From a virus, in IMG/VR virus record IMGVR_UViG_3300028800_000113, positions 1 through 55,323 of that record: DNA of 55,323 bases; one strand, given 5' to 3'. The notes under the pieces were generated by a model. The model saw only the letters and a program-made list of their open reading frames with translations. It searched no databases and was not told the DNA's origin. Position 1 is the stretch's first letter, and each line of letters starts with the position of its first letter. This document shows positions 2,034 to 54,387 of the stretch, one piece after another. Position numbers and translations under genes: made by a program.

Positions 2034-2061
2034 ACAATACACCAAGGGCGGGGCGTGTCAA
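2034..2061 (-). promoter_or_regulatory. Phage promoter, TTGACA-N16-TATTGT
   Basis: On the minus strand: -35 TTGACA (2061-2056), 16-nt spacer ending GGTG, -10 TATTGT (2039-2034). The -35 contains the TGA stop of the metallophosphoesterase gene. It drives 1797-2012. Confidence 0.85.
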
Positions 2062-3290
2062 GTCGTCGAGCGCACAGGGGGGAAGTTCTGCTTGTTCCGC
2101 CCGATCTCGCCGCCGTCCCGGTGAAGCGTGATCGACTGCATCGAACTGCCTGCGCGGTAACCGTGACTATGTGCAAACGAATCGCGTGGCACCGGCTGGC
2201 GAAACGACTCGCAGATGAGCGAGCCGACTTCCTTTTTTGTCTCGTGGTGGATGTGGCCGAAGATGCACCAGCGATAAAGCGATGCGTTCCAGTATTCGGG
2301 GTGGTCCTCCGCCATCATTATGTACATGCGCTCGGGTTTCATGGTGTGCCCGTGCGTGGCACCGATGTAATTGACGCCGAACAAGTGGAAAAAGTGGTCG
2401 TTGTTGCCGTCCTCCGGATCAATCTCCACGCGAGGCTCGTTTTCGTAGAACATGCCGAGCGATATGTTTAGCCAGCTCGCCGACTCGGGGTCGTGGTTAC
2501 CCTTCAGATTCTTGACGATGACTTTCTTGTGCCGCTGCAGCGCGAAATCAATCGTGGTGCGCAGCGTGTTGACGCCGACCCAACGCACCTTCTGGCTTCG
2601 ACCATCGACGTCCAGTTGGTGACCGGAGGCGGGCGTAACGTTGCGCTGATCGTCGGCGTGGAAAAAATCACCCGTGTTGATAATGACAGCGGTATCGGCG
2701 GCCGGCGAAAGTCCGATAAGGCGCTGCAGAGTGCTTTCGATTCGCGCCGTGCCGATTTTCAGGTCGTTCGACTCGCCCGTTTCCTTCCCGAAGGCCATCA
2801 TGCCGGTATGCGGGTCGACGATCGGGTAGTAGTTGCACAGATCCGCGTCCGTATCTTTCGGCGGCGGGACGAGTTTGGCAAAGCCGCGGTATTGTTCGAA
2901 CTCTTGCTTGATCGCGGAAACAAGGTGCGCCGTGTGGGATGCGTCCTCTCGCGTCTTGACCCACTTTGCCAGTTCCCGCCCGTTGGGATCCACCAGGGCG
3001 GAGACGCCCTTGATGCTATGCCCCGCAGGCACCGCAAACGTCTCACCCGCCTCGGGGCGCTGCTCCACCGACTTGCCGCGGGGGCCATCGGTGACGCGCG
3101 CAATGCGGAAGCCCGGCATTGCAGCGGGCGTGTCTAGCAACATCCCGCGCTCGGCGGCCGATTTAAGGTGACCTTGGAAAGTGGACCTAGCCAGTCCCGA
3201 TACCTTAGCCGCGGCGCGCTCTGACCCATACTCTCGGTATAGGTCGGCGGCGGCTCGGCACTGTTCGTCGGTGTGACCGGCTTGTGCCAT
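2058..3290 (-). CDS. Metallophosphoesterase with N-terminal helix-turn-helix
   Basis: 410 aa. Residues 1-50 look like a helix-turn-helix (ERAAAKVSGLARSTFQGHL). The rest is a calcineurin-like phosphoesterase: DPH (159-161), GDFFHADD (207 on), KGNHDPE (263 on), a THGHT segment, and GHIHH near the C-terminus, i.e. the full metal-binding set. Such proteins are common in phages, often labelled DNA repair exonuclease or phosphatase, and are probably cytoplasmic nucleases or phosphodiesterases; the substrate is unknown. It sits downstream of the lysis genes, 2 nt after the membrane coiled-coil gene. Confidence 0.88.
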   Translation of the reverse strand: MAQAGHTDEQCRAAADLYREYGSERAAAKVSGLARSTFQGHLKSAAERGMLLDTPAAMPGFRIARVTDGPRGKSVEQRPEAGETFAVPAGHSIKGVSALVDPNGRELAKWVKTREDASHTAHLVSAIKQEFEQYRGFAKLVPPPKDTDADLCNYYPIVDPHTGMMAFGKETGESNDLKIGTARIESTLQRLIGLSPAADTAVIINTGDFFHADDQRNVTPASGHQLDVDGRSQKVRWVGVNTLRTTIDFALQRHKKVIVKNLKGNHDPESASWLNISLGMFYENEPRVEIDPEDGNNDHFFHLFGVNYIGATHGHTMKPERMYIMMAEDHPEYWNASLYRWCIFGHIHHETKKEVGSLICESFRQPVPRDSFAHSHGYRAGSSMQSITLHRDGGEIGRNKQNFPPVRSTT

Positions 3291-3291
3291 C

Positions 3292-3579
3292 CTAATTGCC
3301 GCGGTCCTTTGTCAGAAGCTCGAACAGATTGTCCAGGCGTTCCGACATATGCTTCACGTCGCTGCGCATCCCTTCGACCGCAACCACCGTGCGCCCTTCG
3401 GCGGCGACGAGCGCGTTATTCAAAGCTGCGTCACTGGCCTGTAGAACCGCGACATGTTTTTCCAGTTCGACTATTTTCTTGTCGCGCGTCGCGAACGCGC
3501 TATTGATCCACCGCACCAAGCCGACCGTGGCGCTAAGTACGACGGAAATAGCCGCCAGTGTGGTCCAGTCGAGTATCAT
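3292..3579 (-). CDS. Membrane-anchored coiled-coil protein
   Basis: 95 aa from ATG at 3579, overlapping the protease stop (ATGA). One N-terminal membrane segment (LAAISVVLSATVGLVRWI) is followed by a long heptad-rich coiled coil ending in HMSERLDNLFELL. The topology fits a bitopic inner-membrane protein. Its place in the lysis cassette suggests a role in lysis or envelope handling, but the Rz/Rz1 pair is elsewhere, so the function is open. Confidence 0.75.
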   Translation of the reverse strand: MILDWTTLAAISVVLSATVGLVRWINSAFATRDKKIVELEKHVAVLQASDAALNNALVAAEGRTVVAVEGMRSDVKHMSERLDNLFELLTKDRGN

Positions 3580-4376
3580 TTCGCGCCGCAACGCGCGAAC
3601 AGGTCCGCAGCGCCGTTCGTCTTGAGGAACGCCTTGATATCGGACAGCGGCACGGAGAAACTGAAGCCGCCGGCAGCCGTGCCGCGCACGTTCACGCCGA
3701 CGAACTCGCCCGAGCCGTCATAGAGCGCACCGCCAGAATTGCCGGGCGCGATGGGTGCCGAGTGCTGCACAAGGCCGTGCTCGCCGTTGTCCGTAAGATC
3801 GCCAAGACTGCCGGCGAGTTGTAGGTCGCGATACGACCGCTCGACACTCGACACGATGCCCTTGGTCACGGTCGAATAGAGCACTGCATAGGAATTGCCG
3901 ACGGCGTAGACCGTGTCGCCGCGAATCGGATCGGTGCACGCCAGAACGGCAGCCTGCGTCGCGGGCAACTTCGTCTGGACCTTGAGCAACGCCAGATCGA
4001 GCGCCTTGTCGGTGTCCACGACTTTATAGACGTAGCTGTTCGTCTGGACGATGCTCGGGCCGGCGTAGTATTCCTGGCTGACGGTGCCGGGACGGACGAT
4101 CTGGATCTTCTCTTTGGTGACCTTGCCGTCTTTGTCGACCTTGTCCTTTTCGACCGTCTCATATTGGCTAGTGACGCAATGCGCTGCGGTCAACACATAG
4201 TTGCGGTTCGTGTCGATCAGCGTTCCCGAACAACCCTTGTTGACCAGGAAGTTCGTCTGGTCGATCTGCCGGTTCATGTCCGCGATCTTCCAGCCATCGG
4301 CGCGGGCGTAGCCAACGACGGCAAGGAGCGCCAGCACGACGAGGACGGGGAGCAGCCACTTGTTGAATTCGCGCAT
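3576..4376 (-). CDS. Secreted or membrane-anchored trypsin-like serine protease
   Basis: 266 aa. An N-terminal hydrophobic segment (WLLPVLVVLALLAVVGYARA, 7-26) could be a signal peptide or anchor. The chymotrypsin-fold triad is intact: His66 in TAAHC, Asp127 in ALDLALL, Ser214 in PGNSGG. There is no PDZ domain, unlike HtrA/DegP. A Lys/Asp-rich insert (72-92) follows the His motif. The protein should act in the periplasm. It lies between the spanins and a membrane coiled-coil gene and overlaps the latter by 4 nt, so it is transcribed with the lysis genes. A trypsin-like protease in a phage lysis cassette is unusual. Confidence 0.9.
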   Translation of the reverse strand: MREFNKWLLPVLVVLALLAVVGYARADGWKIADMNRQIDQTNFLVNKGCSGTLIDTNRNYVLTAAHCVTSQYETVEKDKVDKDGKVTKEKIQIVRPGTVSQEYYAGPSIVQTNSYVYKVVDTDKALDLALLKVQTKLPATQAAVLACTDPIRGDTVYAVGNSYAVLYSTVTKGIVSSVERSYRDLQLAGSLGDLTDNGEHGLVQHSAPIAPGNSGGALYDGSGEFVGVNVRGTAAGGFSFSVPLSDIKAFLKTNGAADLFARCGAK

Positions 4377-4389
4377 TACTGTGTGTCCT

Positions 4390-5750: not shown

Positions 5751-5779
5751 ACAATACCGCACTTATGGAGTATTGTCAA
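5751..5779 (-). promoter_or_regulatory. Lysis operon promoter, TTGACA-N17-TATTGT
   Basis: Minus strand -35 TTGACA (5779-5774), 17-nt spacer starting ATACTCC, -10 TATTGT (5756-5751). The ATG of the holin gene is 6 nt downstream of the -10, predicting a leaderless transcript. Confidence 0.87.
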
Positions 5780-5831
5780 CGTAGGATTAAATACTGGTTG
5801 CGGAGGTCGGCCGATGCGACTAGGGTGAGGT

Positions 5832-8653: not shown

Positions 8654-8685
8654 GTATATTCTCCACTAAAGACGAGTATTATCAA
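8654..8685 (-). promoter_or_regulatory. Promoter-like element before tail fibre gene
   Basis: Minus strand TTGATA (8685-8680) followed by ATACTCG, matching the start of the phage promoter family. The -10 is poor (around GAATAT) and overlaps the GGAG ribosome-binding site, so activity is uncertain. Confidence 0.45.
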
Positions 8686-8688
8686 CCG

Positions 8689-10023: not shown

Positions 10024-10036
10024 GGTGTATTATCAA
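10024..10036 (-). promoter_or_regulatory. TTGATAATACACC element abutting a start codon
   Basis: On the minus strand GGTTGATAATACACC runs straight into the ATG at 10023, and its TGA is the stop of the tail-tip gene. It matches the promoter-family -35 half-site. Read as a -10 (GATAAT, 5 nt before ATG) it would give a leaderless mRNA, but I see no good -35 for that reading. Confidence 0.45.
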
Positions 10037-12549
10037 CCCACATTCACGGAAGCAAGCGTGAACGGCTTTTCGTCCACGCTCGGATTCCAGTTGGATTCAA
10101 TCGAGGCGTCGTATTCGGTCAGGGCGAGGGTTACGGTCGAAAAATCGTCGGAGAAGCCGACGCCCGTCACCATGTAATTGCCGATCGCCATCGGCCATAG
10201 TTGGCTATCCCACGTCCCAACCGATCCGATGAGTTCGTCCGCCGCGACTGCGAGAATGTTCGCGTCAACGGGAACGGTGATCGTTTTACCAAGGCGCGAG
10301 CTGTCGACATACGCCTTGAGCAACCGTTCGGCGCGGCGATAGTCACGGGTGAAATCCAGCGACAGTGTGCCCGGCAAAACCTCTCCGTCCGTCGCCTGAA
10401 GATCGTAGCGGTCAAGGATCGGGCCGTTGACGGTCTGGTAATTCTGCTCCTCGGCCACAAAGACGACTTGCGCGCGATTGATGAGGTCGCGCTTGGCCTT
10501 CGCCGCCTGGTACGTGAACCCGCCGGCAATGATGCCGTCGTGAATGGTGAACGTCGGCGTCTTTGGCCGCGACGACGAAACCCACACCTTGCCGCCGCTC
10601 ATCAGCACGTAACCGCGGTTCGCACTGAGCAGTCGCGGCAGCACGCTATACGGCTTTTCGTTCAGAATGATCGCGCCGTCGATGGTGTATCGCTTGATAA
10701 GCGTGCCATCTGCGCAGCCGACCAGTTCATCGTCATATGTGGCTGCGTCTGCTACGCGGTCCCAATCGATCTTGTCTTTCGGGATACGACCGCCGAATTC
10801 GCGCGTCAGATACCACGCCTGCACGAGAGAGGCGTTATTGGACCACTTCCACGTCGTTTCGTCGTCAAGCAGTTGCTGCGGATCGCGCGGGTCATAGACC
10901 TTGACCCCGTCCACCGACAGGTACGGATCGGGGCGCGCAACCTGTCCCCACAGGGCGTTGAATGCATCTTGCGTCGAGCCGCCGAAATTGTACTCGCCGA
11001 CATACGTGGCAATTCCGCGCTGGCGGAAAATCGTGGTCGACGATCCGGTGTAAAGCGTGAAACTAGCCACAAAGATCGAATGCGTGCCGGCGTCCCCGTT
11101 CTGCTCCTCGATGCTGACTTCGTAATAGCGATACGCTGTGGAGTTGCTGAATGTGCCGGTAAAAGCCGCGTTCGCCGAATAGCTAGCGGCTACGCTGACG
11201 TAAAGGTCGGTCCACGTCGAGTTGTCGTTCGAAGCCCTCAAACGGACGATAACACTTGCACTGGATAAGGCGGCGTCGGTTGGCGCTGTCACACAGAAGC
11301 CGGTAGCCGTCACCGAATGCCCGGAGCCGAGGTCAGCGCCAACTACTGCGGTCAGATTTCCGGTGCCTTCGTAGGACGCGCTTTGCAGCGCGACTTTGAT
11401 CGTTTCGTTGAGCGCCGCAGCACCATTGGTCATCGTACCGATGACGGAAGCGTTGGCGAACGAAACTAGCGAGAGGCTGACGTTCGGATACCGCGCCAAA
11501 ATGAGCGGGTCGGCGTCTTGATCGACAGCACCGAATCGCAGCGACACCCGCATGTTGCCGGGATAGTTCGGCTGTCCGGGTGAAGACAGTGGCGTTTGAA
11601 TCGAGTTCGGCGCCAGGTCCGAAAATAGAAGCGTGTCGGTGCCAATGGTGATGCTGCGAACGGCGGAAATTTCTCCGTCATTAATCAAAATGCCGTGCGT
11701 CAGATACGGCGGCGTCACCTGTTCGAAAAAGAGCGCGCCGCCAACGTAGGCATTACCAACGATGATGCGCTTATACGGAAGCGACTGGCGTTCGGTGACC
11801 TGCACCGACGCTTGCGTACTCTGACCGCCGAGGACGCCGCTGCTACCGCTGGATAGCGACGAATCGCTACCAAGAGATCCCAAGCCTGTGTGCGGCTGGA
11901 GGAATGATGCCGCGAGCGAGAAGCCGACAGAGAGAACCGAAAGCGCCACGAAACCGACTGCACCAGCGACGAATGTAGACGCGCCAGTCACGCCGACCAC
12001 CGCCAAGATGGCAACACCGATGGTGACCGGATCGTAATTCGCGGCGTAAGTCGGTGCGACGCCGCCCATCTTCATGGCGGGTCCGTGAACCGGCGGTTGT
12101 TCTGCGTCATTGAGCACCGACCACGCAATCGGCACGTTCTCGGCCTGCACCGTTGTAAAGCCGCGCTCGTTGCGGGCAACGAACCAGTCGCGCGCCCGGC
12201 AAATGGCGGTGGCCTGAACCGCCGCGCCTTCGGTGATCGTCCACACCAACCCCACGTCGCCGGGCTTCGCCCATCGCGGGTCGATACGCTTCCAGCCGTG
12301 CCGACGCGCTGCGCCTTGGAGCAATCCCTGCATCCCGCCGTTGGCGGAGATGTAACGCAGCGCGCCGAAGCGGGAGTGATACCGGCCCCTATACGCAGCG
12401 ACCGGGTCGTATCCCAACGCATCCTTGACGATGTCCGCAGCCCACAGCGCGCAATCGTCCACGCCCCAACGCATGACCGATCGCCCGGCGCGATCCATGC
12501 CGGCCAAAACTGCTTTCTCTAAGGCGGCTCGCGTCAAGTCGGGGTCCAC
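10033..12549 (-). CDS. Tail-tip protein with fused N-terminal NlpC/P60-like domain
   Basis: About 838 aa. The N-terminal ~150 residues (RWGVDDCALWAADIVKDALG, then GDVGLVWTITEG) resemble the NlpC/P60-like DUF6950 proteins usually encoded separately before the tail-tip gene; the Cys of DDC is the likely nucleophile. After a hydrophobic linker (ILAVVGVTGASTFVAGAVGF) comes a J-like tail-tip/hub protein (SLPYKRIIVGNAYVGG ... FNALWGQVARPD). The start is uncertain: GTG 12549 is used, TTG 12537 (TTGA overlap) is as likely, and upstream GTG 12633 would overlap the previous gene by 100 nt. It forms the distal tail tip, and the peptidase may open the cell wall. Confidence 0.82.
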   Translation of the reverse strand: MDPDLTRAALEKAVLAGMDRAGRSVMRWGVDDCALWAADIVKDALGYDPVAAYRGRYHSRFGALRYISANGGMQGLLQGAARRHGWKRIDPRWAKPGDVGLVWTITEGAAVQATAICRARDWFVARNERGFTTVQAENVPIAWSVLNDAEQPPVHGPAMKMGGVAPTYAANYDPVTIGVAILAVVGVTGASTFVAGAVGFVALSVLSVGFSLAASFLQPHTGLGSLGSDSSLSSGSSGVLGGQSTQASVQVTERQSLPYKRIIVGNAYVGGALFFEQVTPPYLTHGILINDGEISAVRSITIGTDTLLFSDLAPNSIQTPLSSPGQPNYPGNMRVSLRFGAVDQDADPLILARYPNVSLSLVSFANASVIGTMTNGAAALNETIKVALQSASYEGTGNLTAVVGADLGSGHSVTATGFCVTAPTDAALSSASVIVRLRASNDNSTWTDLYVSVAASYSANAAFTGTFSNSTAYRYYEVSIEEQNGDAGTHSIFVASFTLYTGSSTTIFRQRGIATYVGEYNFGGSTQDAFNALWGQVARPDPYLSVDGVKVYDPRDPQQLLDDETTWKWSNNASLVQAWYLTREFGGRIPKDKIDWDRVADAATYDDELVGCADGTLIKRYTIDGAIILNEKPYSVLPRLLSANRGYVLMSGGKVWVSSSRPKTPTFTIHDGIIAGGFTYQAAKAKRDLINRAQVVFVAEEQNYQTVNGPILDRYDLQATDGEVLPGTLSLDFTRDYRRAERLLKAYVDSSRLGKTITVPVDANILAVAADELIGSVGTWDSQLWPMAIGNYMVTGVGFSDDFSTVTLALTEYDASIESNWNPSVDEKPFTLASVNVG

Positions 12550-17913: not shown

Positions 17914-17960
17914 ATTCAACTCCGTCTAAGGGATCGCGCGCCATCACGGCGGGCTATGGG

Positions 17961-17988
17961 TTGACAATACACCATCCCGAGGCATAAT
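17961..17988 (+). promoter_or_regulatory. Plus-strand arm of an interlocked divergent promoter
   Basis: -35 TTGACA (17961-17966), 16-nt spacer starting ATACACC, -10 CATAAT (17983-17988). Drives the secreted moron at 18034. Its -35 overlaps the -10 of the minus-strand promoter and its -10 overlaps the minus-strand -35. Confidence 0.8.
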
Positions 17989-22024: not shown

Positions 22025-22052
22025 ACTATACACCCTTGCGGGGGATTGTCAA
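22025..22052 (-). promoter_or_regulatory. Phage promoter, TTGACA-N16-TATAGT
   Basis: Minus strand -35 TTGACA (22052-22047), 16-nt spacer ending GGTG, -10 TATAGT (22030-22025). The TAG stop of the 60-aa gene is inside the -10. It drives the head-tail connector genes through the hairpin at 21946-21990. Confidence 0.83.
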
Positions 22053-22208
22053 CGTCTCGCGCTGCTTCGGCGGTGCCGGCGGAGGTGGAGGCGGGGGCGG
22101 CACCGGGGCCGACTCGCGCCAGCCGTGGCTGCGCCAATTCACCACCTCATCGGGGTGAACATCCGCAGTCTTGCCGGTATCCATGTGGGTCATCGGAACT
22201 GTGGGCAT
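22026..22208 (-). CDS. Small Pro-rich protein (60 aa)
   Basis: ATG 22208 with AGGAG 6 nt ahead. N-terminal PTVPMTHMDTGKTADVHPDE and WRSHGWRES, then a run of eight prolines and a basic end. A longer in-frame product from ATG 22307, overlapping the HExxH gene stop (ATGGCTGA), would add 33 residues with a hydrophobic LSINFALWGMIGC segment; I prefer the start with the strong ribosome-binding site. Function unknown. Confidence 0.65.
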   Translation of the reverse strand: MPTVPMTHMDTGKTADVHPDEVVNWRSHGWRESAPVPPPPPPPPAPPKQRETLTIPRKGV

Positions 22209-24649: not shown

Positions 24650-24678
24650 CCGGGCCGTCGCACAATACGGCGGCCCGG
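24650..24678 (-). terminator. Hairpin downstream of the coat gene
   Basis: 11-bp inverted repeat (24650-24660 with 24668-24678, one G-U) and loop CACAATA. It follows the coat stop, but the trailing sequence is only weakly T-rich (TTCCTCTT). The loop holds the -10 hexamer of the next promoter. Confidence 0.5.
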
Positions 24679-24689
24679 AGTATTATCAA
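24662..24689 (-). promoter_or_regulatory. Phage promoter variant, TTGATA-N16-TATTGT
   Basis: Minus strand -35 TTGATA (24689-24684), 16-nt spacer ATACTCC..., -10 TATTGT (24667-24662), the latter in a hairpin loop. Drives the 24064-24624 structural gene. Confidence 0.72.
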
Positions 24690-24692
24690 CCG

Positions 24693-25838: not shown

Positions 25839-25855
25839 TTATTTCCCTTTCAGGG

Positions 25856-30880: not shown

Positions 30881-30909
30881 ATAATACACGAAGATGGGAG
30901 GATTGTCAA
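30881..30909 (-). promoter_or_regulatory. Head-operon promoter, TTGACA-N17-TATTAT
   Basis: Minus strand -35 TTGACA (30909-30904), 17-nt spacer, -10 TATTAT (30886-30881). The -35 includes the TGA stop of the 30906-31100 gene. It likely starts transcription of the whole head-tail operon. Confidence 0.85.
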
Positions 30910-31398: not shown

Positions 31399-31823
31399 GG
31401 CCGCCCCTGATTGGCCGCCATGTGCTCTGGCCAGAACGCGCTCACGAACGATGGATAGTAGTCGTCGGAGTTGTCGGTTCCGACTTCCAAAACCGTCTTG
31501 CCGGTCACCACGTCGATCATTTCGAGAGTGTCGTTCGTGTTACCGTATCGGTCGTCGGGTTTCTTACGGACCAGCACGCGGCAGGGCTGGAACACGTTGC
31601 GCAATTCGTCGGTCGGAGAGACGAACAGTTTGCCGAGATAACTTCGGTAGCCGTCGCTCGGATCCTCCGTGGCGGTATAGACGACGCCGTCGAGTCGAAA
31701 GCGGATGCAGTTCGCGTCCTCTAAATCATCACGCCATTCATACATCTTTACCTTTTCGACGAACGTATCAACCGCGTCCAGAACGTGCTCGCCAACAAGG
31801 CTCATCAGTTCGACGTCGCTCAT
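31395..31823 (-). CDS. Hypothetical protein (142 aa)
   Basis: Acidic protein with GGAG before the ATG. CIRFRLDGVVYTATEDPSDG, YLGKLFVSPTDELRNVFQPC and LEMIDVVTGKTVLEVGTDNS suggest a small alpha/beta fold. No family recognised. Part of the 32584-30906 operon. Confidence 0.72.
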   Translation of the reverse strand: MSDVELMSLVGEHVLDAVDTFVEKVKMYEWRDDLEDANCIRFRLDGVVYTATEDPSDGYRSYLGKLFVSPTDELRNVFQPCRVLVRKKPDDRYGNTNDTLEMIDVVTGKTVLEVGTDNSDDYYPSFVSAFWPEHMAANQGRP

Positions 31824-32008
31824 CGCTGGCTCCTGTTGCTTGGCAGCCCATTGACCAAATTCGACCGCACGCCCCACGAGTCCTCGCCGAACTCGACCGG
31901 CTCGACGCGAACCTGGTGGCCTCGCTTCGCCCAATACGCGGCGATCGTGCGGCAGAGCGCATTGGCGCCGGCGCGGGAAAGGAGGTCGGGAATTTCACTG
32001 TACGGCAC
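31820..32008 (-). CDS. Small conserved phage protein (62 aa)
   Basis: GTG start inside the end of the preceding gene (TTG 32023 also possible). LLSRAGANALCRTIAAYWAK then HQVRVEPVEFGEDSWGVRSN and LVNGLP. The mixture of a short helix and beta strands is familiar from phage accessory regions. Function unknown. Confidence 0.68.
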   Translation of the reverse strand: MPYSEIPDLLSRAGANALCRTIAAYWAKRGHQVRVEPVEFGEDSWGVRSNLVNGLPSNRSQR

Positions 32009-32590: not shown

Positions 32591-32619
32591 ACAATAAGCC
32601 AAGAACGGAGTATTGTCAA
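32591..32619 (-). promoter_or_regulatory. Phage promoter, TTGACA-N17-TATTGT
   Basis: Minus strand -35 TTGACA (32619-32614), 17-nt spacer ATACTCC..., -10 TATTGT (32596-32591). Predicts a leaderless mRNA for 32584 and drives genes down to 30906. Confidence 0.87.
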
Positions 32620-32639
32620 CGGAAATCGCGAGTCAACCG

Positions 32640-32837
32640 TTACGTCTTGAACGGATTGCTGTAGAGCGTACCGTCCGGGAAATGATAGCGACCGCACTTT
32701 TCACACGCCCACCGAGCGTAGAACGGCTGCGGGTCGGCCGGCGCGTCGACGGCAAACGCACTGGTGGCAGTTTCCCGGTAAACCGGTTGTAGATATGGTG
32801 TCGGGCCGTTGTCGTGACCACAGTGGAGACACCGCAT
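32640..32837 (-). CDS. Zinc-ribbon protein (65 aa)
   Basis: Two CxxC knuckles, CLHCGHD at the N-terminus and CEKCGRYHF near the C-terminus, fit a zinc ribbon. The start overlaps the preceding stop (TGATG). Likely nucleic-acid or protein binding; target unknown. Confidence 0.78.
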   Translation of the reverse strand: MRCLHCGHDNGPTPYLQPVYRETATSAFAVDAPADPQPFYARWACEKCGRYHFPDGTLYSNPFKT

Positions 32838-33109
32838 CACTCGCTCCCACGTTGCTGCACCTTATATACCCACGCCCGACTGCACCGCGCCAGCTCCGCC
32901 ACGCGCGCCGGTTCGATTCCCTCGCGCAACAGCCCAGCCACCAGGATCGCCACATCGCTGCCCCTTGGTCGCGGCGCGCGGGGCCGATCGGGTCGATGGC
33001 GCCGCAGGGTAGTGTAGACCGTGGATAGGGACGTGGCGAGGCGGGTGGCGATGGCGGCGGGGGAATGGCCGGCGTCGGAGAGGGCGAGGATGGTGTCGCG
33101 GGTGGTCAT
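32837..33109 (-). CDS. DNA-binding protein with two helix-turn-helix motifs
   Basis: 90 aa. HSPAAIATRLATSLSTVYTT and EPARVAELARCSRAWVYKVQ each look like a complete helix-turn-helix, joined by a basic Arg/Pro linker (RPDRPRAPRPRG). A tandem HTH without other domains fits a transcription regulator. It is in the operon started by the 33386-33413 promoter and is a candidate to recognise the repeated promoter half-sites. This link is inference. Confidence 0.8.
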   Translation of the reverse strand: MTTRDTILALSDAGHSPAAIATRLATSLSTVYTTLRRHRPDRPRAPRPRGSDVAILVAGLLREGIEPARVAELARCSRAWVYKVQQRGSE

Positions 33110-33385: not shown

Positions 33386-33413
33386 ACAATACACCGTCAC
33401 AACGCACTGTCAA
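33386..33413 (-). promoter_or_regulatory. Phage promoter, TTGACA-N16-TATTGT
   Basis: Minus strand -35 TTGACA (33413-33408), spacer GTGCGTTG...GGTG (16 nt), -10 TATTGT (33391-33386). The helicase stop codon TGA lies in the -35. Confidence 0.87.
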
Positions 33414-34999
33414 CCGCTATTTGCAGCGGCAGGCAACGGGACAATAATCTCCGCCCCGTCCGCCGTGACCTGCCTCGCGCTGGTCCGCGAAGCACCATTC
33501 GGCAACAGAATGGCCGAGCCGTCCGCACGGATCCACCGCGCCTCTCGCACGCGCTCCGCCAGCCCCGCCGCCAAGGCAACGCCATCCGCAACAACCGCGC
33601 CGTCCTGCTCCCACACGCGCCGAATCGCCTGCCACCCGCCCGACCTATCGGTGCCACCCTTCCACGACGCAATCAGCGCCGCGCCCGACGGCACGTCGAA
33701 CAACTTCGCAGTGGTCGGCTCGGAGCGTTCCGACCGCATGTCGAACGCGCAATGCGGACAGTCCAGCGTGCCCTTAGCGACGGGGACCAGGCACGCCGGA
33801 CAATTCTTGGTCATCACCGCGTCGCATTTCCAGCAGCGCGCCGCGGCGGCAGCGTTGCGCGTGCCGCACTCGTCGCAGGAGACCAACCGCGCTTTGGTTT
33901 CGCGGGGACGGATGAAGTCAAGTGGGCCGTGAGTCGAAATGTTCCCGCCCCAGTCAAAAAGTAGACCATCAGACTTGCCGGCGGCGATCGACGACTCGAT
34001 GTTGCCACCAACGGTGCGCAAGAGCCGACCGCACACTTGAATATATTTTCCGAGGCTCTTGGTGGCGAAGCGCATGGCGAGCAAGTCGACGCGTGGATTA
34101 TCAAACCCCGTTGTCAGCACATCTTTGTTGACGATCGCCTGCAGTTCGCCGCGGCGGAATGCCTCGATATTACGTGTTCGCTCGGCGTCCGGCATGTCAC
34201 CTATAACCAGGCCGGCGCGAATGCCCCACTCGTTAAGGCGCTGACACATTGCGCGTGCGGCCTTGACGGACGCCTCGAAAATGAGCCACGCGCGACGCTC
34301 GCTGCGGTATGGAATCAACTGGCAAATGTGATTATCCATTTGCGCGAGCATCTGCGTGTCTTGCGAATCACCCGTGTACTCGCCTTGTCGCGTCTTAAGC
34401 GCAGACAAGTCCATCGTATCCGTGACGCTGGCCGAGAACGCAGGGACAAGGTAGCCGTCGCGGATGCCGTCAATGATGGAATATCGGTAGACGACCTTAT
34501 CGAACGGCGCTTCCTCGCCTTCCACAAGCGACCCGCCTTGCAAACGGAATACCGTGCCGGAAAAGCCGGCTTGGCGCGCATGTGGAAAACCGCGCAGGAA
34601 TTGGCGGTACATGCCGGCCTGCGAATGTGGGATCAGGTGGCACTCGTCAATAAAGATATTGTCGATGTGGCCGAAGGCGGCAGCGTTGCGATATACGCTG
34701 TTAATCATCGCCACGATAACGGGAGCGCGCCATGTGCGCTCACCAAGCGAATCGCCGTTCAAGCCGCAACGCACGCCAAGCGACTGCAGAGCCGCGTAGT
34801 CCTGAAATGCCAACTCTTTCTTGTGGACGAGCACGATCGATCGTTCGCCGCGCTCGCACGCGCGCCGACACAGTTCCGCGATACTCAGAGACTTACCGGA
34901 TCCAACACACGCGTCGACCAGTGGGCGCAACGTGCCGCAGCGCCACGCCATTTCGATGGCGTCGGCTATTTCGATTTGGTGGCGCCGAAGGGTAATCAC
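33410..34999 (-). CDS. SF2 DEAD/DEAH-type helicase with zinc-ribbon tail
   Basis: 529 aa. Q-like LRRHQIEIADAI, Walker A ACVGSGKS (30-37), DECH box IDECHLI, motif III-like FSGTVFRL, motif V LTTGFDNPRVD and motif VI QVCGRLLRT. Residues about 390-440 hold CDECG, CWKCD, CPAC and CPHC, i.e. two zinc ribbons. Likely unwinds DNA during replication or recombination. Preceded by an HNH-AP2 gene with 4-nt overlap. Confidence 0.92.
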   Translation of the reverse strand: MITLRRHQIEIADAIEMAWRCGTLRPLVDACVGSGKSLSIAELCRRACERGERSIVLVHKKELAFQDYAALQSLGVRCGLNGDSLGERTWRAPVIVAMINSVYRNAAAFGHIDNIFIDECHLIPHSQAGMYRQFLRGFPHARQAGFSGTVFRLQGGSLVEGEEAPFDKVVYRYSIIDGIRDGYLVPAFSASVTDTMDLSALKTRQGEYTGDSQDTQMLAQMDNHICQLIPYRSERRAWLIFEASVKAARAMCQRLNEWGIRAGLVIGDMPDAERTRNIEAFRRGELQAIVNKDVLTTGFDNPRVDLLAMRFATKSLGKYIQVCGRLLRTVGGNIESSIAAGKSDGLLFDWGGNISTHGPLDFIRPRETKARLVSCDECGTRNAAAAARCWKCDAVMTKNCPACLVPVAKGTLDCPHCAFDMRSERSEPTTAKLFDVPSGAALIASWKGGTDRSGGWQAIRRVWEQDGAVVADGVALAAGLAERVREARWIRADGSAILLPNGASRTSARQVTADGAEIIVPLPAAANSG

Positions 35000-35548: not shown

Positions 35549-35576
35549 AGGATACACTACCGCAACGCACTGTCAA
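35549..35576 (-). promoter_or_regulatory. Phage promoter, TTGACA-N16-TATCCT
   Basis: Minus strand -35 TTGACA (35576-35571), spacer GTGCGTTG...AGTG (16 nt), -10 TATCCT (35554-35549). It lies within the 3' end of the 35557 gene and 7 nt before the HNH-AP2 start. Confidence 0.8.
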
Positions 35577-35739
35577 CTTCTAAGTACGGCAGGCCCGACT
35601 GAAACGCCACGGGCTGCAACTGCCGCTGCCACAGGCACGGCGGCTTTTCCTCGTCGTGGTCCCACGACAGCCGGCACCGACGACACTGGTAATCGCCGGT
35701 TGACAGGCGGATGGCGTCACAGTGGCTAGTTGCGCTCAT
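35557..35739 (-). CDS. Small Cys-containing protein (60 aa)
   Basis: HCDAIRLSTGDYQCRRCRLS then WDHDEEKPPC: three to four Cys around a CRRC knuckle suggest zinc binding. The C-terminus is encoded by the -35 region of the next promoter. ATGA overlap with the upstream gene. Function unknown. Confidence 0.72.
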   Translation of the reverse strand: MSATSHCDAIRLSTGDYQCRRCRLSWDHDEEKPPCLWQRQLQPVAFQSGLPYLEVDSALR

Positions 35740-37263: not shown

Positions 37264-37291
37264 ACTATACGCCGCGTGGGTGTATTGTCAA
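37264..37291 (-). promoter_or_regulatory. Phage promoter, TTGACA-N16-TATAGT
   Basis: Minus strand -35 TTGACA (37291-37286), spacer ATACACCC...(16 nt), -10 TATAGT (37269-37264). The TAG stop of the 37288 gene lies just upstream (TAGG-TTGACA). Drives 37235 down to 35557. Confidence 0.87.
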
Positions 37292-37626
37292 CCTAATTCC
37301 GTGGCAGCGCGCCACTTGACCTTACACGCCAGCGTCGCCGGGTCTCGATCGCCCCCATTGGCCGCGGCCCATGCCGGAAAGCGCCAGTCCGCCCGCTCGA
37401 TCACATCCAGCCCCTCTTGCACCGACCCGAACCGCACCCCGCCGAGCTGCCAGCCGGTCGGCCGGTGCGTGACGTAATAGCCGCCCAACGAATGCACATG
37501 CCAGCGGCTCGTGTCGTGGTCGTAAATGTGCGCCAAGGTGACGGCGAGGGGACAGGTTGCGTCGGGCGTAGCGCCCATGACCTGCAGGGGCGGGTTCATG
37601 TCGCGAGTGCGGAGCGTTACCGTCAC
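37288..37626 (-). CDS. Hypothetical protein (112 aa)
   Basis: GTG start overlapping the DUF1937 stop (GTGA). VTLAHIYDHDTSRWHVHSLG, YYVTHRPTGWQLGGVRF and DVIERADWRFPAW suggest a compact beta domain rich in His and Trp. Family not recognised. Confidence 0.7.
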   Translation of the reverse strand: MTVTLRTRDMNPPLQVMGATPDATCPLAVTLAHIYDHDTSRWHVHSLGGYYVTHRPTGWQLGGVRFGSVQEGLDVIERADWRFPAWAAANGGDRDPATLACKVKWRAATELG

Positions 37627-39506: not shown

Positions 39507-39534
39507 ATGATACGCTAGTTTCGTGTATTGTCAA
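39507..39534 (-). promoter_or_regulatory. Phage promoter, TTGACA-N16-TATCAT
   Basis: Minus strand -35 TTGACA (39534-39529), spacer ATACACG... (16 nt), -10 TATCAT (39512-39507). It overlaps the 3' end of the 39515 gene and drives genes from 39481 to 37288. Confidence 0.85.
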
Positions 39535-39736
39535 CGCAAATATGGCAAGTGGCCACGGCCTCGCCGTTGACCGTCACCAAGTTCGGCTCGTCGTAGTCCA
39601 CGTCATCCGGGAGACAGTTGAATTGAGCGGCAATGGTGCGGGCGATCCAGTCCCATGCCGCGGCGGCGTCCGGGGCCAGCGTGCCGGCGAGGGGGTGGCC
39701 GTTGGTGCGGGTGAGGGCGAGGTGGGTGCGAGGCAT
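39515..39736 (-). CDS. Hypothetical protein (73 aa)
   Basis: ATG 39736 with GGGAGGG ahead. AAAWDWIARTIAAQFNCLPD, DVDYDEPNLVTVNGEAVATC and HICVDN; small alpha/beta protein. Its last codons are encoded by the -35 and spacer of the next promoter. Function unknown. Confidence 0.7.
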   Translation of the reverse strand: MPRTHLALTRTNGHPLAGTLAPDAAAAWDWIARTIAAQFNCLPDDVDYDEPNLVTVNGEAVATCHICVDNTRN

Positions 39737-39993: not shown

Positions 39994-40033
39994 ATCATAC
40001 ACCGACGCGGCGCACTGTCAACTGCATTGTCAA
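39994..40033 (-). promoter_or_regulatory. Phage promoter with tandem -35 elements
   Basis: Minus strand -35 TTGACA (40021-40016), spacer GTGCGCCG...GGTG (16 nt), -10 TATGAT (39999-39994). A second TTGACA half-site lies 12 bp upstream (40033-40028), the only such pair in the window. Confidence 0.82.
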
Positions 40034-40086
40034 CGGATAATCGCACAACCGGGGAGTATACCTAGGAGCCACAGGCAACCGGCTGA

Positions 40087-40161: not shown

Positions 40162-40466
40162 CGTTTGAAGAGTTCTACAGAAATAGGTCAATATTACTTA
40201 CCTGTCTACTCATAATAGCAGTGTATACGTATAATCGCAGCGTACTGTGCGCCCCGTAGCCTATGTAGGCGGCCGTTCCGTTCATAAATTGTAATTCGCG
40301 CCAAATTCGCTATATGGGGGTTGACTTTAAGTCTGTACACACGCTTATAGCGCGCTGTTCTACGCTATGTAGACCTTCCGGTTGTGCTCGGAAAATTGCG
40401 AATAGAACAATAATTACAGTACGTTGACTGTCAACAGTTACTAGCGCAACGGAACACGTTAGAACA
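40135..40466. repeat. Direct repeat CGGAACA(C)GTTAGAACA
   Basis: One copy at 40135-40150 (16 bp) and one at 40450-40466 (17 bp, one extra C), framing the non-coding region. Related GTTCTAC words occur at about 40172 and 40358. Confidence 0.75.
40407..40434 (-). promoter_or_regulatory. Orphan promoter, TTGACA-N16-TATTGT
   Basis: Minus strand -35 TTGACA (40434-40429), 16-nt spacer, -10 TATTGT (40412-40407). The -35 is part of the palindrome GTTGACTGTCAAC. No gene begins for roughly 440 nt downstream, so it may make a non-coding RNA or prime replication. Confidence 0.72.
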
Positions 40467-41272: not shown

Positions 41273-41301
41273 ACAATAATACACTTGACGCGGATTGTCA
41301 A
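41273..41301 (-). promoter_or_regulatory. Promoter of the GIY-YIG gene, TTGACA-N17-TATTGT
   Basis: Minus strand -35 TTGACA (41301-41296), 17-nt spacer, -10 TATTGT (41278-41273). Interlocked with the plus-strand promoter at 41285-41313. Confidence 0.8.
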
Positions 41302-41313
41302 CCGTAGTACGGT
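41285..41313 (+). promoter_or_regulatory. Promoter of the rightward small-gene operon
   Basis: -35 TTGACG (41285-41290), 17-nt spacer, -10 TACGGT (41308-41313). Divergent from and overlapping the GIY-YIG promoter. It precedes about 20 plus-strand genes (41335-45486) with no other promoter of this family. Confidence 0.62.
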
Positions 41314-50496: not shown

Positions 50497-50525
50497 ACAA
50501 TACCGCGCTAACGGTGTATTGTCAA
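50497..50525 (-). promoter_or_regulatory. Methyltransferase operon promoter, TTGACA-N17-TATTGT
   Basis: Minus strand -35 TTGACA (50525-50520), spacer ATACACCG... (17 nt), -10 TATTGT (50502-50497). Near-leaderless start for 49738-50487; it also serves the downstream primase. Confidence 0.87.
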
Positions 50526-50543
50526 CCTAACCGCAAAGTGAAA

Positions 50544-50576: not shown

Positions 50577-51098
50577 TTAGGTCAATTCCTTGCGGATCGC
50601 TTTGATTACCTCGTCGGAAATCTTGACCCCCTGCTCGCGCAGTTTGGTTACGACTGTATCGATATAGCTGGTGGGGTGCCAACTCAGGCCATCCCGCTCC
50701 AGCTCTTTACTGAGCCTGGCATGGAGACCTTCGCGCACATCATAGCCGCGATCGGCTATGCCCTGTACGATTCGCGTAAGGTGCCGGGCCTGCTCGATCG
50801 TCGTGTCGGGATATTGGCCTACTGTGATGTTAGGGCGCGACGCTTCCAGTCTATATGTGGCGCTGAACGCCACTTCGCCGCTCGGATAGAGGATTGTCCG
50901 AAGGCCCGATTGGCGGTCATCGCCGATGTTGTAGCGTTTGCCGTTTCTCTTGGCTAATGCCGACATCTTCTCGATCAATTCTTTCGTGACCTTGCTCGGC
51001 CCGCTTGGCGGCGGAGGCGGAGGCGGCGATTTCTTACGACGTTTAACCCGGTAGATCATAGGTGCCCCATCGCTTGAGATATTCGATACGCAGTACAT
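50577..51098 (-). CDS. Orphan integrase arm-binding-like (DUF4102) protein
   Basis: 173 aa from ATG 51098 with GGAG ahead. After a seven-Pro linker, residues about 57-130 match the N-terminal arm-DNA-binding domain of tyrosine integrases: GDDRQSGLRTILYPSG, FSATYRLEASRPNITVGQYP and TIEQARHLTRIVQGIADRGY. The catalytic R-H-R-Y domain is absent. The C-terminus (YIDTVVTKLREQGVKISDEV) is unrelated. It may be a DNA-binding regulator or a remnant; the intact frame and ribosome-binding site argue for function. Confidence 0.78.
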   Translation of the reverse strand: MYCVSNISSDGAPMIYRVKRRKKSPPPPPPPSGPSKVTKELIEKMSALAKRNGKRYNIGDDRQSGLRTILYPSGEVAFSATYRLEASRPNITVGQYPDTTIEQARHLTRIVQGIADRGYDVREGLHARLSKELERDGLSWHPTSYIDTVVTKLREQGVKISDEVIKAIRKELT

Positions 51099-51168
51099 GA
51101 CGCACTCCTGTTGAAATGCCCGCATAAGGCATACTAATCGGTTCCTCTACTTTTCGTTCCGAACGTGG

Positions 51169-51196
51169 TTGACAATTCTCACGACAGGTGTATTGT
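51169..51196 (+). promoter_or_regulatory. Phage promoter, TTGACA-N16-TATTGT
   Basis: -35 TTGACA (51169-51174), 16-nt spacer ending AGGTG, -10 TATTGT (51191-51196). Starts the rightward early/replication operon at 51237. Confidence 0.88.
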
Positions 51197-51236: not shown

Positions 51237-51866
51237 ATGCCGTTCGTTTTCACTGTCAACCCAAAATCCGTAGATATTACATACGAGGTCGACACCGTTA
51301 AGGAGGGTATGGACATCCTCAACAGCGAGGAAATGGTCGAAGCCCGTCGCCAGATCGGTTCAGAAGACGCCGAATCAACCCCCGCCGCGGACAATACCAC
51401 GGCGCCGCCGGCTGCGCCCGCCGCCGAGGCCCCCACGACCGCAAAGAAACGCGACCGTCCGGCCAAGAACCAGCCCGCCCCGGAAACTGCCACGGCTCCG
51501 CCGCCGGCTCCGATTCCGACTGCCGCCCCGACGCCGCCTGTGCCCCCGGTCCCGCCACTGGTCACGGCGCCCGCTGTCGACGATGGCTCGATCCCGCCGT
51601 TCCTGAAGCGTGACGGGGCGGCGGCTGTGCCTGCCCCTGTTGCCCCGCCGCCGGCGCCGTCCATCACACTCGGCCCCAAGATTCGCGCGCATATCGAGGC
51701 GCAGGCCGGTGACGATGCGACCAAGAAACAGTACCTCGACTGGCTCGCGTCGCCGGGCATCGGCCTGGTCATCCCAAACGTCAGTTGGGACGAGGCGATG
51801 GGCGTCCTGCAATACACGACCGACGCGCAGTGCGGCGGCGTGGCCAAGGCGCTCGGCGTTTCGTAG
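51237..51866 (+). CDS. Pro/Ala-rich early protein (209 aa)
   Basis: GGAG before the ATG. N-terminal MPFVFTVNPKSVDITYEVDT and a helix (LNSEEMVEARRQIG), then about 100 residues of Pro/Ala-rich linker, and a C-terminal domain (IRAHIEAQAGDDATKKQYLD, GLVIPNVSWDEAMGVLQYTT). Two folded ends joined by a flexible linker suggest a tether or scaffold for replication proteins. Family unknown. Confidence 0.76.
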   Translation: MPFVFTVNPKSVDITYEVDTVKEGMDILNSEEMVEARRQIGSEDAESTPAADNTTAPPAAPAAEAPTTAKKRDRPAKNQPAPETATAPPPAPIPTAAPTPPVPPVPPLVTAPAVDDGSIPPFLKRDGAAAVPAPVAPPPAPSITLGPKIRAHIEAQAGDDATKKQYLDWLASPGIGLVIPNVSWDEAMGVLQYTTDAQCGGVAKALGVS

Positions 51867-51894
51867 TTGACAGTGCGCGTGTAGGGTGTAGTGT
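51867..51894 (+). promoter_or_regulatory. Phage promoter, TTGACA-N16-TAGTGT
   Basis: -35 TTGACA (51867-51872) starts right after the TAG of the Pro-rich gene; spacer GTGCGCGT...GGTG (16 nt); -10 TAGTGT (51889-51894). Precedes the 51944 gene. Confidence 0.78.
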
Positions 51895-53501: not shown

Positions 53502-53776
53502 CCAAATATGCAGACGCCGATCTGGTTGCGTGTCACGCTGCCGGTATGACAGTCGATGAGGCGCACGCCCATCTAGACAGGCTTGCGCGTGTTGACCGCA
53601 ACACACTAGCCCGCGCCATTTACGAGGCGATGCAGAAAAAGGCCAACGAGATCGAGCCGGGTCACATGGACGACGACGGGTGGGACCAGGAAGGCGAGGA
53701 CGCGGAGAAGTGTCGCGAATGTTTCAGGGCGGGTGCGGACGCTGCTTTGGCGGCGTTGGTTGACAATACACCATAA
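53498..53776 (+). CDS. Hypothetical protein (92 aa)
   Basis: ATGA overlap with DUF2800. DADLVACHAAGMTVDEAHAH, helical middle (TLARAIYEAMQKKANEI), acidic part and ECFRAGADAALAALVDNTP. The last four codons are encoded by the -35 and spacer of the next promoter. Function unknown. Confidence 0.74.
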   Translation: MTKYADADLVACHAAGMTVDEAHAHLDRLARVDRNTLARAIYEAMQKKANEIEPGHMDDDGWDQEGEDAEKCRECFRAGADAALAALVDNTP

Positions 53777-53788
53777 CAGGCGTATCGT
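53760..53788 (+). promoter_or_regulatory. Phage promoter, TTGACA-N17-TATCGT
   Basis: -35 TTGACA (53760-53765), spacer ATACACC... (17 nt), -10 TATCGT (53783-53788). It lies in the end of the 53498 gene. The SPFH ATG is 8 nt after the -10, giving a leader of about 1-2 nt. Confidence 0.84.
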
Positions 53789-53796
53789 GCCGCCCC

Positions 53797-54363
53797 ATGC
53801 ACGGCACCATTGTCGAACTGATTCTCCAAAACCTGATGTCGCTTTTCCCATTCGTGATGGTGAAAAGCTATCAGGAGGGGATACGCTGGACGCTCGGGCG
53901 GAACCCCAAGGCGATGCGCCCCGGCCCGCACTGGAAAATCTGGTTGCTGCATTCGTTCGACGTCTACGATATGTGCGACGACGTGATCGACCTGCCGGTG
54001 CAATCGGTCATCACCAAGGACGAAAAGCTCGTTTGTTTCTCGGTGAACATCGGGTTCCGGGTGGTCGACGTCGTGGCGCACGGCTGCAATGTGCAGGACT
54101 TCGTCGAAAGCACCGCCGGCCTTTCCATGACACACCTGGCGCAGCGGATCCGCGAAAAAGATTTGAAAGACCTGACCGAGCCGGGCGGTCTGCGCGACCT
54201 GGAAAAGTCGCTGGAAGGCACCTTGACCACGCGGATGAAGCGGTGGGGGACGGAGGTCTTTTCAGTCGGGTTCACCAATTTCGCCGAGGTGCCGCGGCAG
54301 ATGCGGATATTCCTCGACAGCCACCGGAACGCCCATCCGCTCGCGGCCGTGGTCGGGCGTTGA
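53797..54363 (+). CDS. SPFH/band-7 domain membrane protein
   Basis: 188 aa. N-terminal hydrophobic helix (IVELILQNLMSLFPFVMV), then a stomatin/prohibitin-type SPFH domain: SYQEGIRWTLGRNPKAMRPG, VIDLPVQSVITKDEKLVCFS and VNIGFRVVDVV, with LEGTLTTRMKRWGTEVFSVG at the end. It lacks the long coiled-coil tail of flotillins. Such proteins oligomerise on the inner membrane (HflK/C, stomatins). In a phage replication operon it could anchor DNA replication or block host proteases or superinfection; this is inference. Leaderless start. Confidence 0.87.
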   Translation: MHGTIVELILQNLMSLFPFVMVKSYQEGIRWTLGRNPKAMRPGPHWKIWLLHSFDVYDMCDDVIDLPVQSVITKDEKLVCFSVNIGFRVVDVVAHGCNVQDFVESTAGLSMTHLAQRIREKDLKDLTEPGGLRDLEKSLEGTLTTRMKRWGTEVFSVGFTNFAEVPRQMRIFLDSHRNAHPLAAVVGR

Positions 54364-54387
54364 CAGTGCGCGGGAATGGTGTATAGT
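54360..54387 (+). promoter_or_regulatory. Phage promoter, TTGACA-N16-TATAGT
   Basis: -35 TTGACA (54360-54365) includes the TGA stop of the SPFH gene; spacer GTGCGCGG...GGTG (16 nt); -10 TATAGT (54382-54387). Drives the ssDNA-binding protein gene. Confidence 0.87.

What the first reader, a model, noticed from the sequence alone, without database searches (positions are those of the whole stretch)
2034..54387. A family of about 20 near-identical promoters on both strands controls the whole phage
Seen directly: TTGACA-N16/17-TATTGT (or TATAGT, TATTAT, TATCAT, TATGAT, TATCCT, TATCGT, TAGTGT) at 2034, 5751, 17961, 22025, 24662, 25856, 30881, 32591, 33386, 35549, 37264, 39507, 39994, 40407, 41273, 50497, 51169, 51867, 53760 and 54360. 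Two spacer classes recur after the -35: ATACACC/ATACTCC and GTGCG, and most spacers end GGTG. The left part (GTTGACAATACACC) is the reverse complement of the right part (GGTGTATTGTCAAC), so each promoter is made of two facing half-sites. A repeated asymmetric 13-14-bp site containing TGTCAA recalls the stoperators of mycobacteriophage L5 (GGTGGMTGTCAAG). I infer a dedicated DNA-binding regulator may read these half-sites.
Basis: partly seen in the sequence, partly recalled or inferred. Interest (0 to 1): 0.85.

Follow-up and report, generated by a model that had tools for sequence, protein, structure and literature searches.

The report
Phage-wide operators built onto -35 boxes
This uncultured temperate phage and its relatives carry roughly 10 to 30 copies each of a short palindrome-like DNA switch fused to the start signal of many of their gene groups, with one half fixed and the other half different from phage to phage, which looks like a whole-genome off-switch whose key has changed many times.

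Summary
In detail: 18 TTGACA-N16/17-TATNNT sites, 0.01 expected. A trained matrix finds 25 operator sites, 23 outside gene interiors. A near-identical contig carries an integrase just beyond the window's end, so the phage looks temperate. Of 17 related records, 13 gave, in a search without seed sequence, a repeated 15-bp quasi-palindrome centred on the last base of the -35 box and scoring above their shuffles. Its GTTGAC half is constant and doubles as the -35; the other half is phage-specific (ATACACC here; ATAAACC, GTTCACA, ATCGGCA, TTCCGCA, TACANCG elsewhere). Over 16 phages TAnnnT follows at spacer 16/17 in 152 of 355 sites (6 on the mirror strand), unevenly between phages. Best reading: a phage-encoded repressor occludes the -35 of most phage promoters, and the free half carries its specificity. 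L5 stoperators are an analogy: Trixie sites lack a -10, and its repressor has no match here. The regulator is unproved; two conserved candidates remain, a 90-aa tandem-HTH protein and a free-standing integrase arm-type domain whose gene has operators beside it in 14 of 14 phages. The RHH and Myb-like candidates have no match in 16 relatives.

The parts
5767..5781 (-). operator CGTTGAC-A-ATACTCC on the -35; -10 TATTGT at spacer 17; ATG of 5538-5744 six bases after the -10
8673..8687 (-). operator GGTTGAT-A-ATACTCG, upstream of 6440-8653; no TAnnnT at 16/17
10024..10038 (-). operator GGTTGAT-A-ATACACC, at the start of 8689-10023; no TAnnnT at 16/17
2029..2043 (+). operator CGTTGAC-A-ATACACC that lies on the -10 of the - strand promoter at 2034-2061 (a full second operator at a -10)
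17959..17973 (+). operator GGTTGAC-A-ATACACC; CATAAT at spacer 16
22040..22054 (-). operator-promoter CGTTGAC-A-ATCCCCC, -10 TATAGT, spacer 16
24677..24691 (-). operator-promoter GGTTGAT-A-ATACTCC, -10 TATTGT, spacer 16
25854..25868 (+). promoter TTGACAGTGATGAA, -10 TATTGT (not among the 25 matrix sites)
30897..30911 (-). operator-promoter GGTTGAC-A-ATCCTCC, -10 TATTAT, spacer 17; a facing operator match at 30876-30890 (+) covers its -10
32607..32621 (-). operator-promoter CGTTGAC-A-ATACTCC, -10 TATTGT, spacer 17; ATG of 32318-32584 six bases after the -10
33401..33415 (-). operator-promoter GGTTGAC-A-GTGCGTT, upstream of the genes 33109-33384 and tandem HTH 32837-33109
35564..35578 (-). promoter TTGACAGTGCGTTG, -10 TATCCT (not among the 25 matrix sites)
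37279..37293 (-). operator-promoter GGTTGAC-A-ATACACC, -10 TATAGT
39522..39536 (-). operator-promoter CGTTGAC-A-ATACACG, -10 TATCAT
40009..40035 (-). two overlapping operators, AGTTGAC-A-GTGCGCC (promoter, -10 TATGAT) and CGTTGAC-A-ATGCAGT
40407..40434 (-). promoter TTGACAGTCAACGT..TATTGT; the matrix scores the same palindrome (CGTTGACTGTCAACA) on the + strand at 40422-40436
41289..41303 (-). operator-promoter GGTTGAC-A-ATCCGCG, -10 TATTGT
50513..50527 (-). operator-promoter GGTTGAC-A-ATACACC, -10 TATTGT, upstream of 49738-50487
51167..51181 (+). operator-promoter GGTTGAC-A-ATTCTCA, -10 TATTGT, reads into 51237-51866
51247..51261 (-). operator-promoter GGTTGAC-A-GTGAAAA, -10 TATTAT, reads toward the Arm gene 50577-51098
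51865..51879 (+). operator-promoter AGTTGAC-A-GTGCGCG, -10 TAGTGT
53758..53772 (+). operator-promoter GGTTGAC-A-ATACACC, -10 TATCGT, upstream of 53797-54363
54358..54372 (+). operator-promoter CGTTGAC-A-GTGCGCG, -10 TATAGT, upstream of the ssDNA-binding protein gene 54435-55223
50577..51098 (-). candidate regulator 1: free-standing arm-type DNA-binding domain protein (PF13356), divergent from 51237-51866
32837..33109 (-). candidate regulator 2: 90-aa tandem helix-turn-helix protein, close to the helicase gene
31820..32008 (-). 62-aa protein of unknown function, found in 11 of 11 large relatives; operators upstream in 12 of 15

Best explanation
Shown: 25 sites in the window share a 15-bp quasi-palindromic element centred on the last base of the -35 hexamer (about -38 to -24), 16 of them followed by TAnnnT at spacer 16 or 17; related phages have the same design with the constant half GTTGAC and a different second half. 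Inferred: a phage-encoded DNA-binding protein (a dimer, or a single chain with two binding modules) recognises the element, covers the -35 and keeps sigma70 RNA polymerase off, so that one protein silences most transcription units of the prophage and, at the divergent 50577/51237 junction, probably its own gene. Loss of the protein would release many near-consensus promoters together. Because the left half must stay a -35 box, mainly the right half is free to change, so it carries the phage's own (immunity-like) specificity. A weaker inverted half on the -10 may add to occlusion. The reader protein is either the free-standing arm-type domain protein (50577-51098) or the tandem-HTH protein (32837-33109); I rate them about equal, with a slight preference for the arm protein because of its gene position.
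For: Enrichment and placement. Palindrome search without a seed sequence: 15 of 17 records exceed all 5 of their own shuffles, 13 of these with the motif in the -35 register; window 77.3 vs shuffle maximum 36.2; seven phages outside the group 27 to 41. Oriented matrices, seeded with GTTGAC: 11 to 31 sites in 16 records and 6 in a 9-kb record; from 13/16 to 22/22 outside gene interiors, where 19 to 30% of the DNA lies. TAnnnT at spacer 16: 105, 17: 47 of 355 sites; mirror strand 3 and 3; a same-strand gene start within 300 bp for 278 of 355, an opposite-strand start only for 34. Palindromes that lack TTGACA exist (G001 40571, 16500, 46609), so the element is more than a -35. In a 6.5-Mb Rhodoplanes genome bin all 6 exact GTTGACAATCNGCA lie on one 28-kb stretch of the prophage contig. 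An integrase lies in the flank (L099 4077-5141, PF00589 E 2.4e-18). Arm gene: operators within 350 bp upstream in 14 of 14 phages, 23 vs 2.2 expected. Overlap with the -35 fits occlusion (general knowledge of sigma70 promoters).
Against: No binding or transcription data. With 6-bp arms and other gaps, this register was best in 9 of 17 records, tied in 1, not best in 7. G436 and G437 did not exceed shuffles, G428 did so narrowly (42.3 vs 39.8), and in G440 and G441 the unseeded motif was A/T-rich and in another register. 203 of 355 sites have no TAnnnT at 16/17, and the share is low in some phages (2 of 31 in G030, 3 of 17 in G002), so some sites may be promoterless or use other -10s. Neither candidate's sequence tracks operator change clearly. 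The XRE gene beside the integrase matched only in the window's flanks and G002, not in G001, G027 or G030, so the lysogeny repressor is not settled. Activation is not excluded.
Confidence: 0.7

Rival explanations
1. The regulator is an activator or sigma-appropriation factor that binds at about -30 (as T4 MotA does, recalled) and turns on the promoters during lytic growth.
For: The element is centred at about -30; phages have their own versions; sites are upstream of many gene groups.
Against: The -35 half stays TTGAC and TAnnnT sits at optimal spacing in 152 of 355 sites, i.e. promoters that should work unaided; face-to-face operator pairs in G434 and palindromes without TTGACA fit repression better.
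Confidence: 0.14
2. They are plain host sigma70 promoters; the 3' flank of the -35 is a host promoter preference, not an operator.
For: Near-consensus -35 and -10; a G before the -10 recurs in several phages.
Against: The right half differs between phages while the -35 stays; palindromes without TTGACA; the motif is confined to the prophage contig in the Rhodoplanes bin; seven phages outside the group, three of them with rhizobial or Caulobacter hosts, scored 27 to 41.
Confidence: 0.07
3. One reading: the primary unit is two facing half-sites, one on the -35 and one on the -10.
For: Own-matrix scores on -10 windows beat swapped matrices (sum of z 14.1 vs a mean of 7.8 for foreign ones, 0 of 20000 permutations; window rank 1 of 13); hits above 5 bits sit at +19 to +21 in 32 of 33, 24 of 33 inverted. 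At 2034 the -10 carries a full operator.
Against: The -10 matches are weak in many sites (7 of 18 window sites above 0.5 bits), and the own matrix ranks first in only 2 of 13 phages; the palindrome on the -35 is what the unseeded search returns in 13 of 17 records.
Confidence: 0.08
4. Stoperators: sites that block elongation rather than initiation, as in Cluster A mycobacteriophages.
For: Number per genome, orientation with transcription, a TTGACA half and a CACC half.
Against: Trixie, run through a like pipeline: 0 of 25 sites with TAnnnT at 16/17 against 152 of 355 here.
Confidence: 0.04

Closest known systems
Cluster A mycobacteriophage (L5, Trixie, TipsytheTRex) immunity repressor and its operators/stoperators (PMC9283540, PMC6550527: passages read)
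   Same: 20 to 30 sites per genome, oriented with transcription, TTGACA in one half, motif differs between subclusters; the repressor uses two HTH-like modules in one chain.
   Different: Theirs, per those passages: asymmetric 13-bp sites, most not at promoters, elongation block. Here: 15-bp quasi-palindrome on the -35, often with a -10; the Trixie repressor has no match in the six-frame ORFs of 19 records at E < 1.
Phage P1 C1 repressor and its operators (PMC8546580 passages; first 50 kb of NC_005856)
   Same: 22 dispersed operators; some overlap a -35 (Ossb, Oc4 in the record's annotation).
   Different: C1 sites are asymmetric 17-mers of another sequence and their position relative to the promoter varies; C1 was not searched for here.
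Bacillus prophage SPbeta MrpR and SPBRE (PMC10516654: passages read)
   Same: A master repressor bound at repeated intergenic elements; MrpR has a tyrosine-recombinase fold but lacks key catalytic residues, a precedent for an integrase-derived repressor.
   Different: MrpR holds core-binding and catalytic domains; the candidate here models as an arm-type domain only; the DNA elements were not compared.
Paired-domain / Tc3- and Mos1-type bipartite HTH, and the CRISPR-repeat-binding protein 2lvs
   Same: Two HTH units joined by an Arg/Pro-rich linker in one chain, the architecture of the tandem-HTH candidate.
   Different: Fold matches are weak (best E 0.025); the 90-aa protein has no room for a transposase domain.

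Membership tests
Cluster A (L5-type) stoperator system | 20-30 repeated sites per genome | tested here: met
   25 in the window; 11 to 31 in 16 records (some incomplete), 6 in a 9-kb record
[quoted passage not shown]
   Window: TAnnnT at spacer 16/17 in 16 of 25. Pooled: 152 of 355 vs 6 on the mirror strand; Trixie 0 of 25. In some relatives the share is low (2 of 31 in G030)
Cluster A (L5-type) stoperator system | Asymmetric site without dyad symmetry | tested here: inconclusive
   The palindrome model scored 77.3 on the window and 79.1 on Trixie, so that score alone does not separate the two
Cluster A (L5-type) stoperator system | Repressor homologous to the Cluster A Rep | tested here: not met
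   Trixie gp75 by blastp vs six-frame ORFs of 19 records: none at E < 1; the window's flanks were not in that set
P1 C1 operator system | C1 homologue and ATTGCTCTAATAAATTT-type operators | not tested
   The operator sequence differs by eye; C1 not searched
SPbeta MrpR | Repressor with tyrosine-recombinase core-binding and catalytic domains | tested here: not met
   The arm candidate models as an arm-type domain only; the other candidate is a tandem HTH
CI/LexA (S24)-type immunity repressor | HTH + S24 peptidase protein conserved with the operators | tested here: inconclusive
   G002 has one (PF00717 E 3.7e-24); as a query it found nothing better than E 3.7 in the window, its flanks and G001; other CI types and the other records were not searched
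Arm-type DNA-binding domain (PF13356) | Profile and fold match | tested here: met
   PF13356 E 3.1e-7; 3ju0, 3rmp, 3jtz E <= 6.6e-4
Regulator of these operators | Binds the operator | not testable with these tools
   needs protein and DNA

The most novel reading that the evidence does not exclude
In an uncultured group of temperate phages, apparently of Alphaproteobacteria, a stray integrase arm-type domain (or a paired-domain-like tandem HTH) has become the master repressor of the whole phage, reading operators fused to most of its -35 boxes. Keeping one half fixed as the -35 while the other half drifts has produced about a dozen distinct immunity-like specificities within one phage group.
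Probability: 0.4. Interest if true: 0.78.

Novelty: new variant of a known kind. Interest (0 to 1): 0.62.

Why it matters
Dispersed operators under one repressor are known from a few phages (Cluster A mycobacteriophages, P1, SPbeta). Here the operator is fused to the -35 across a whole uncultured phage group, with one half constrained by RNA polymerase and the other free to diverge. That gives a natural series of operator specificities with candidate regulators, useful for testing how immunity specificity evolves, and points to a possibly unrecognised repressor family. In four searches of the held open-access library I saw no report of this system in the listings; that library lacks most subscription papers.

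Tried and rejected
Dyad between -35 and -10 as the main element: kept as a secondary one. Candidates dropped: RHH 41574 and the frames at the Myb-like 43917 (no match in the 16 other records); XRE beside the integrase (matches in the window's flanks and G002, not in G001, G027, G030); the S24 repressor of G002 (no match in the window, its flanks and G001); the OmpR/CtrA-type C-terminal domain protein (profile search: 9 of 11 large records, not in G432 and G434; PF00486 in three members). Telling arm from HTH by covariation: column tests gave HTH R88 with r1 (familywise p 0.27) and arm H142 with r1 (0.049, but that follows one clade); parsimony steps summed over operator positions were arm 30, helicase 33, small protein 35, HTH 37, without a null; Mantel on 12 common phages: arm r 0.30, p 0.019, falling to 0.09 without G441, while genes with no reason to read operators did as well or better (prim-pol 0.27, terminase 0.32 on their own sets). 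None decides. An exact viral scan for a full -35/-10 dyad found nothing. The arm search in 397 genomes of the order of the Rhodoplanes bin gave 65 matching genomes; the bin's own match (1.3e-53) stood far above the rest (2.6e-12 or weaker), most of which lie in open frames of integrase length. In 50,697 phage records the tandem HTH of G002 found no relative and the arm protein of G027 only integrases. G437 was left out of the pooled counts and tests, and G434 of the covariation tests for the arm and of the trees and Mantel tests. The control shuffles used fewer starts and iterations. Gene calls come from my own simple caller, so starts are approximate. The protein L106 2768-4744 looked like a DNA polymerase by eye but had no Pfam match at E 0.01, nor had the putative VRR-NUC protein.

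Full report
What was claimed. About 20 near-identical promoters on both strands, each made of two facing half-sites, resembling L5 stoperators and perhaps read by a dedicated regulator.

Observation. TTGACA-N16/17-TATNNT occurs 18 times in the window against 0.01 expected. Of 25 matrix sites, 20 have a same-strand gene start within 300 bp.

What the phage is. A tailed phage with a tape-measure protein, a P22-type coat protein, portal and terminase (coat relatives annotated as P22 coat protein), a prim-pol/VapE helicase, a ResIII-type helicase and an Enc34-type ssDNA-binding protein. The contig stops inside the genome. G004 overlaps its left end at 100% and G007 its right end at 97-98% apart from a diverged stretch around 54.4-55.2 kb. 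Beyond the ends they carry two different integrases: L099 4077-5141 (PF00589 E 2.4e-18) and L106 7256-8419 (E 2.8e-4, below Pfam's cut-off). I take the phage as temperate, of about 62 kb (my estimate from the overlaps). The 20 kb tested has no near DNA match among 50,697 phage records. Relatives sit in genome bins titled Rhodoplanes and Afipia.

The element in relatives. A per-genome matrix fit showed that in two relatives the repeated element is a palindrome centred on the last base of the -35: GGTTGAC-A-RTMAACC in G001 and TGTTGAC-A-GTTCACA in G002. I gathered 17 records by prim-pol, arm, HTH and helicase searches (window, G001, G002, G027, G030, G428, G430-G438, G440, G441). G439 shows the same sites as G438 and G028 the same HTH as G002; neither was analysed. 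A palindrome model without seed sequence exceeded all 5 shuffles in 15 of 17, with the motif in the -35 register in 13; G428 only narrowly; G440 and G441 gave an A/T-rich motif in another register; G436 and G437 failed. With 6-bp arms and other gaps, this register was best in 9, tied in 1, not best in 7. Oriented matrices, seeded with GTTGAC, gave sites mostly outside gene interiors: window 23/25, G001 23/27, G002 17/17, G027 13/14, G030 26/31, G428 13/16, G430 9/11, G431 21/23, G432 20/21, G433 22/22, G434 21/23, G435 26/27, G436 12/13, G437 6/6, G438 24/29, G440 29/31, G441 24/25. The left half xGTTGAC is constant (in part by the seeding); the right half is not. In G030, G432, G434 and G435 no relative of the window's coat or portal protein was found, yet the operators are there.

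Promoter context. Over 355 sites of 16 phages, TAnnnT stands at spacer 16 in 105 and 17 in 47, against 3 and 3 on the mirror strand; a same-strand gene start lies within 300 bp for 278, an opposite-strand start only for 34. By phage the share with TAnnnT runs from 2 of 31 (G030) to 14 of 21 (G432); window 16 of 25. The element thus overlaps the -35, where a bound protein would block sigma70. In G001 some palindromes lack TTGACA. In the 6.5-Mb Rhodoplanes bin all 6 exact GTTGACAATCNGCA lie within 28 kb of the prophage contig.

The -10 half-site. Scoring the -10 windows with own and foreign operator matrices, own matrices win overall (135 promoters of 13 phages, 0 of 20000 permutations; the window ranks 1 of 13), with full second operators left out; matches above 5 bits sit at +19 to +21 in 32 of 33, 24 of 33 inverted (second operators included). 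By phage the effect is uneven (own matrix first in 2 of 13).

Who reads it. Families found in all 11 large relatives are the helicase (a recruiting query), the tandem HTH and a 62-aa protein that lie near it, and the distant arm-type protein. The tandem HTH models as two three-helix units with a linker (mean pLDDT 90.7); its best but weak fold matches are Mos1, Pax-6 and Tc3 bipartite HTHs and 2lvs (E 0.025 to 0.15). The arm protein matches arm-type domains of HAI7, P4-like and HPI integrases (E 1.8e-4 to 6.6e-4; model mean pLDDT 73.1). Operators lie within 350 bp upstream of the arm gene in 14 of 14 phages (23, expected 2.2), of its divergent neighbour in 13 of 13, of the ssDNA-binding protein in 12 of 12, of the 62-aa protein in 12 of 15, of the tandem HTH in 5 of 16. 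The arm/51237 junction recalls the divergent repressor/early junction of other temperate phages. The arm copy found in G434 is short (79 aa), in a contig that also lacks the prim-pol, nuclease and SSB families, so it does not decide. Covariation tests were inconclusive.

Known kinds. Cluster A phages: passages read in PMC9283540 and PMC6550527. Trixie, put through a like pipeline seeded with TTGACA, gave 25 sites, most of the form TTGACAttcacc, none with TAnnnT at 16/17, and its repressor has no match here. Both systems share a TTGACA half and a CACC-type half, which I take as convergence; the palindrome model scored similarly on both, so symmetry alone does not separate them. P1 C1: 22 operators, a 17-bp asymmetric consensus (PMC8546580 passages), some overlapping a -35 in the first 50 kb of the annotated record. 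SPbeta MrpR: a recombinase-fold master repressor (PMC10516654 passages).

Verdict. Regulation by occlusion and the identity of the regulator are inferences.

Noticed in passing
5744, 32584 (-); also 35541, 50487, 53797: At two promoters the ATG starts exactly six bases after the -10 (transcript would be leaderless); three others are within 7-9 bases.
   Followed up: partly
L099 4077-5141 and L106 7256-8419: Contigs almost identical to the window elsewhere carry different integrases and neighbouring genes just beyond the window's ends: a swapped integration module.
   Followed up: partly
L099 5315-5539 (-), overlapping window 1-33: A small XRE-type regulator near the integrase, with a relative in G002.
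   Followed up: partly
L099 2074-2448; G001 10467-11141; G002 27640-28269: Phage proteins with an OmpR-type C-terminal DNA-binding domain (PF00486); by eye like the cell-cycle regulator CtrA; family seen in 9 of 11 large records.
   Followed up: partly
window 41335-45486 (+): A block of 14 called small genes on the + strand without tblastn matches in G001 or G002 and without an operator site on its strand at its head.
   Followed up: no
window 51237-51866 (+): Proline/alanine-rich 209-aa protein of unknown function, found in 10 of 11 large relatives and divergent from the arm gene.
   Followed up: partly
G434 (L226-L228): Face-to-face full operators with centres about 19 bp apart.
   Followed up: no
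L167/G001 tandem HTH: An 11-residue insertion inside the first HTH of the G001 protein.
   Followed up: no
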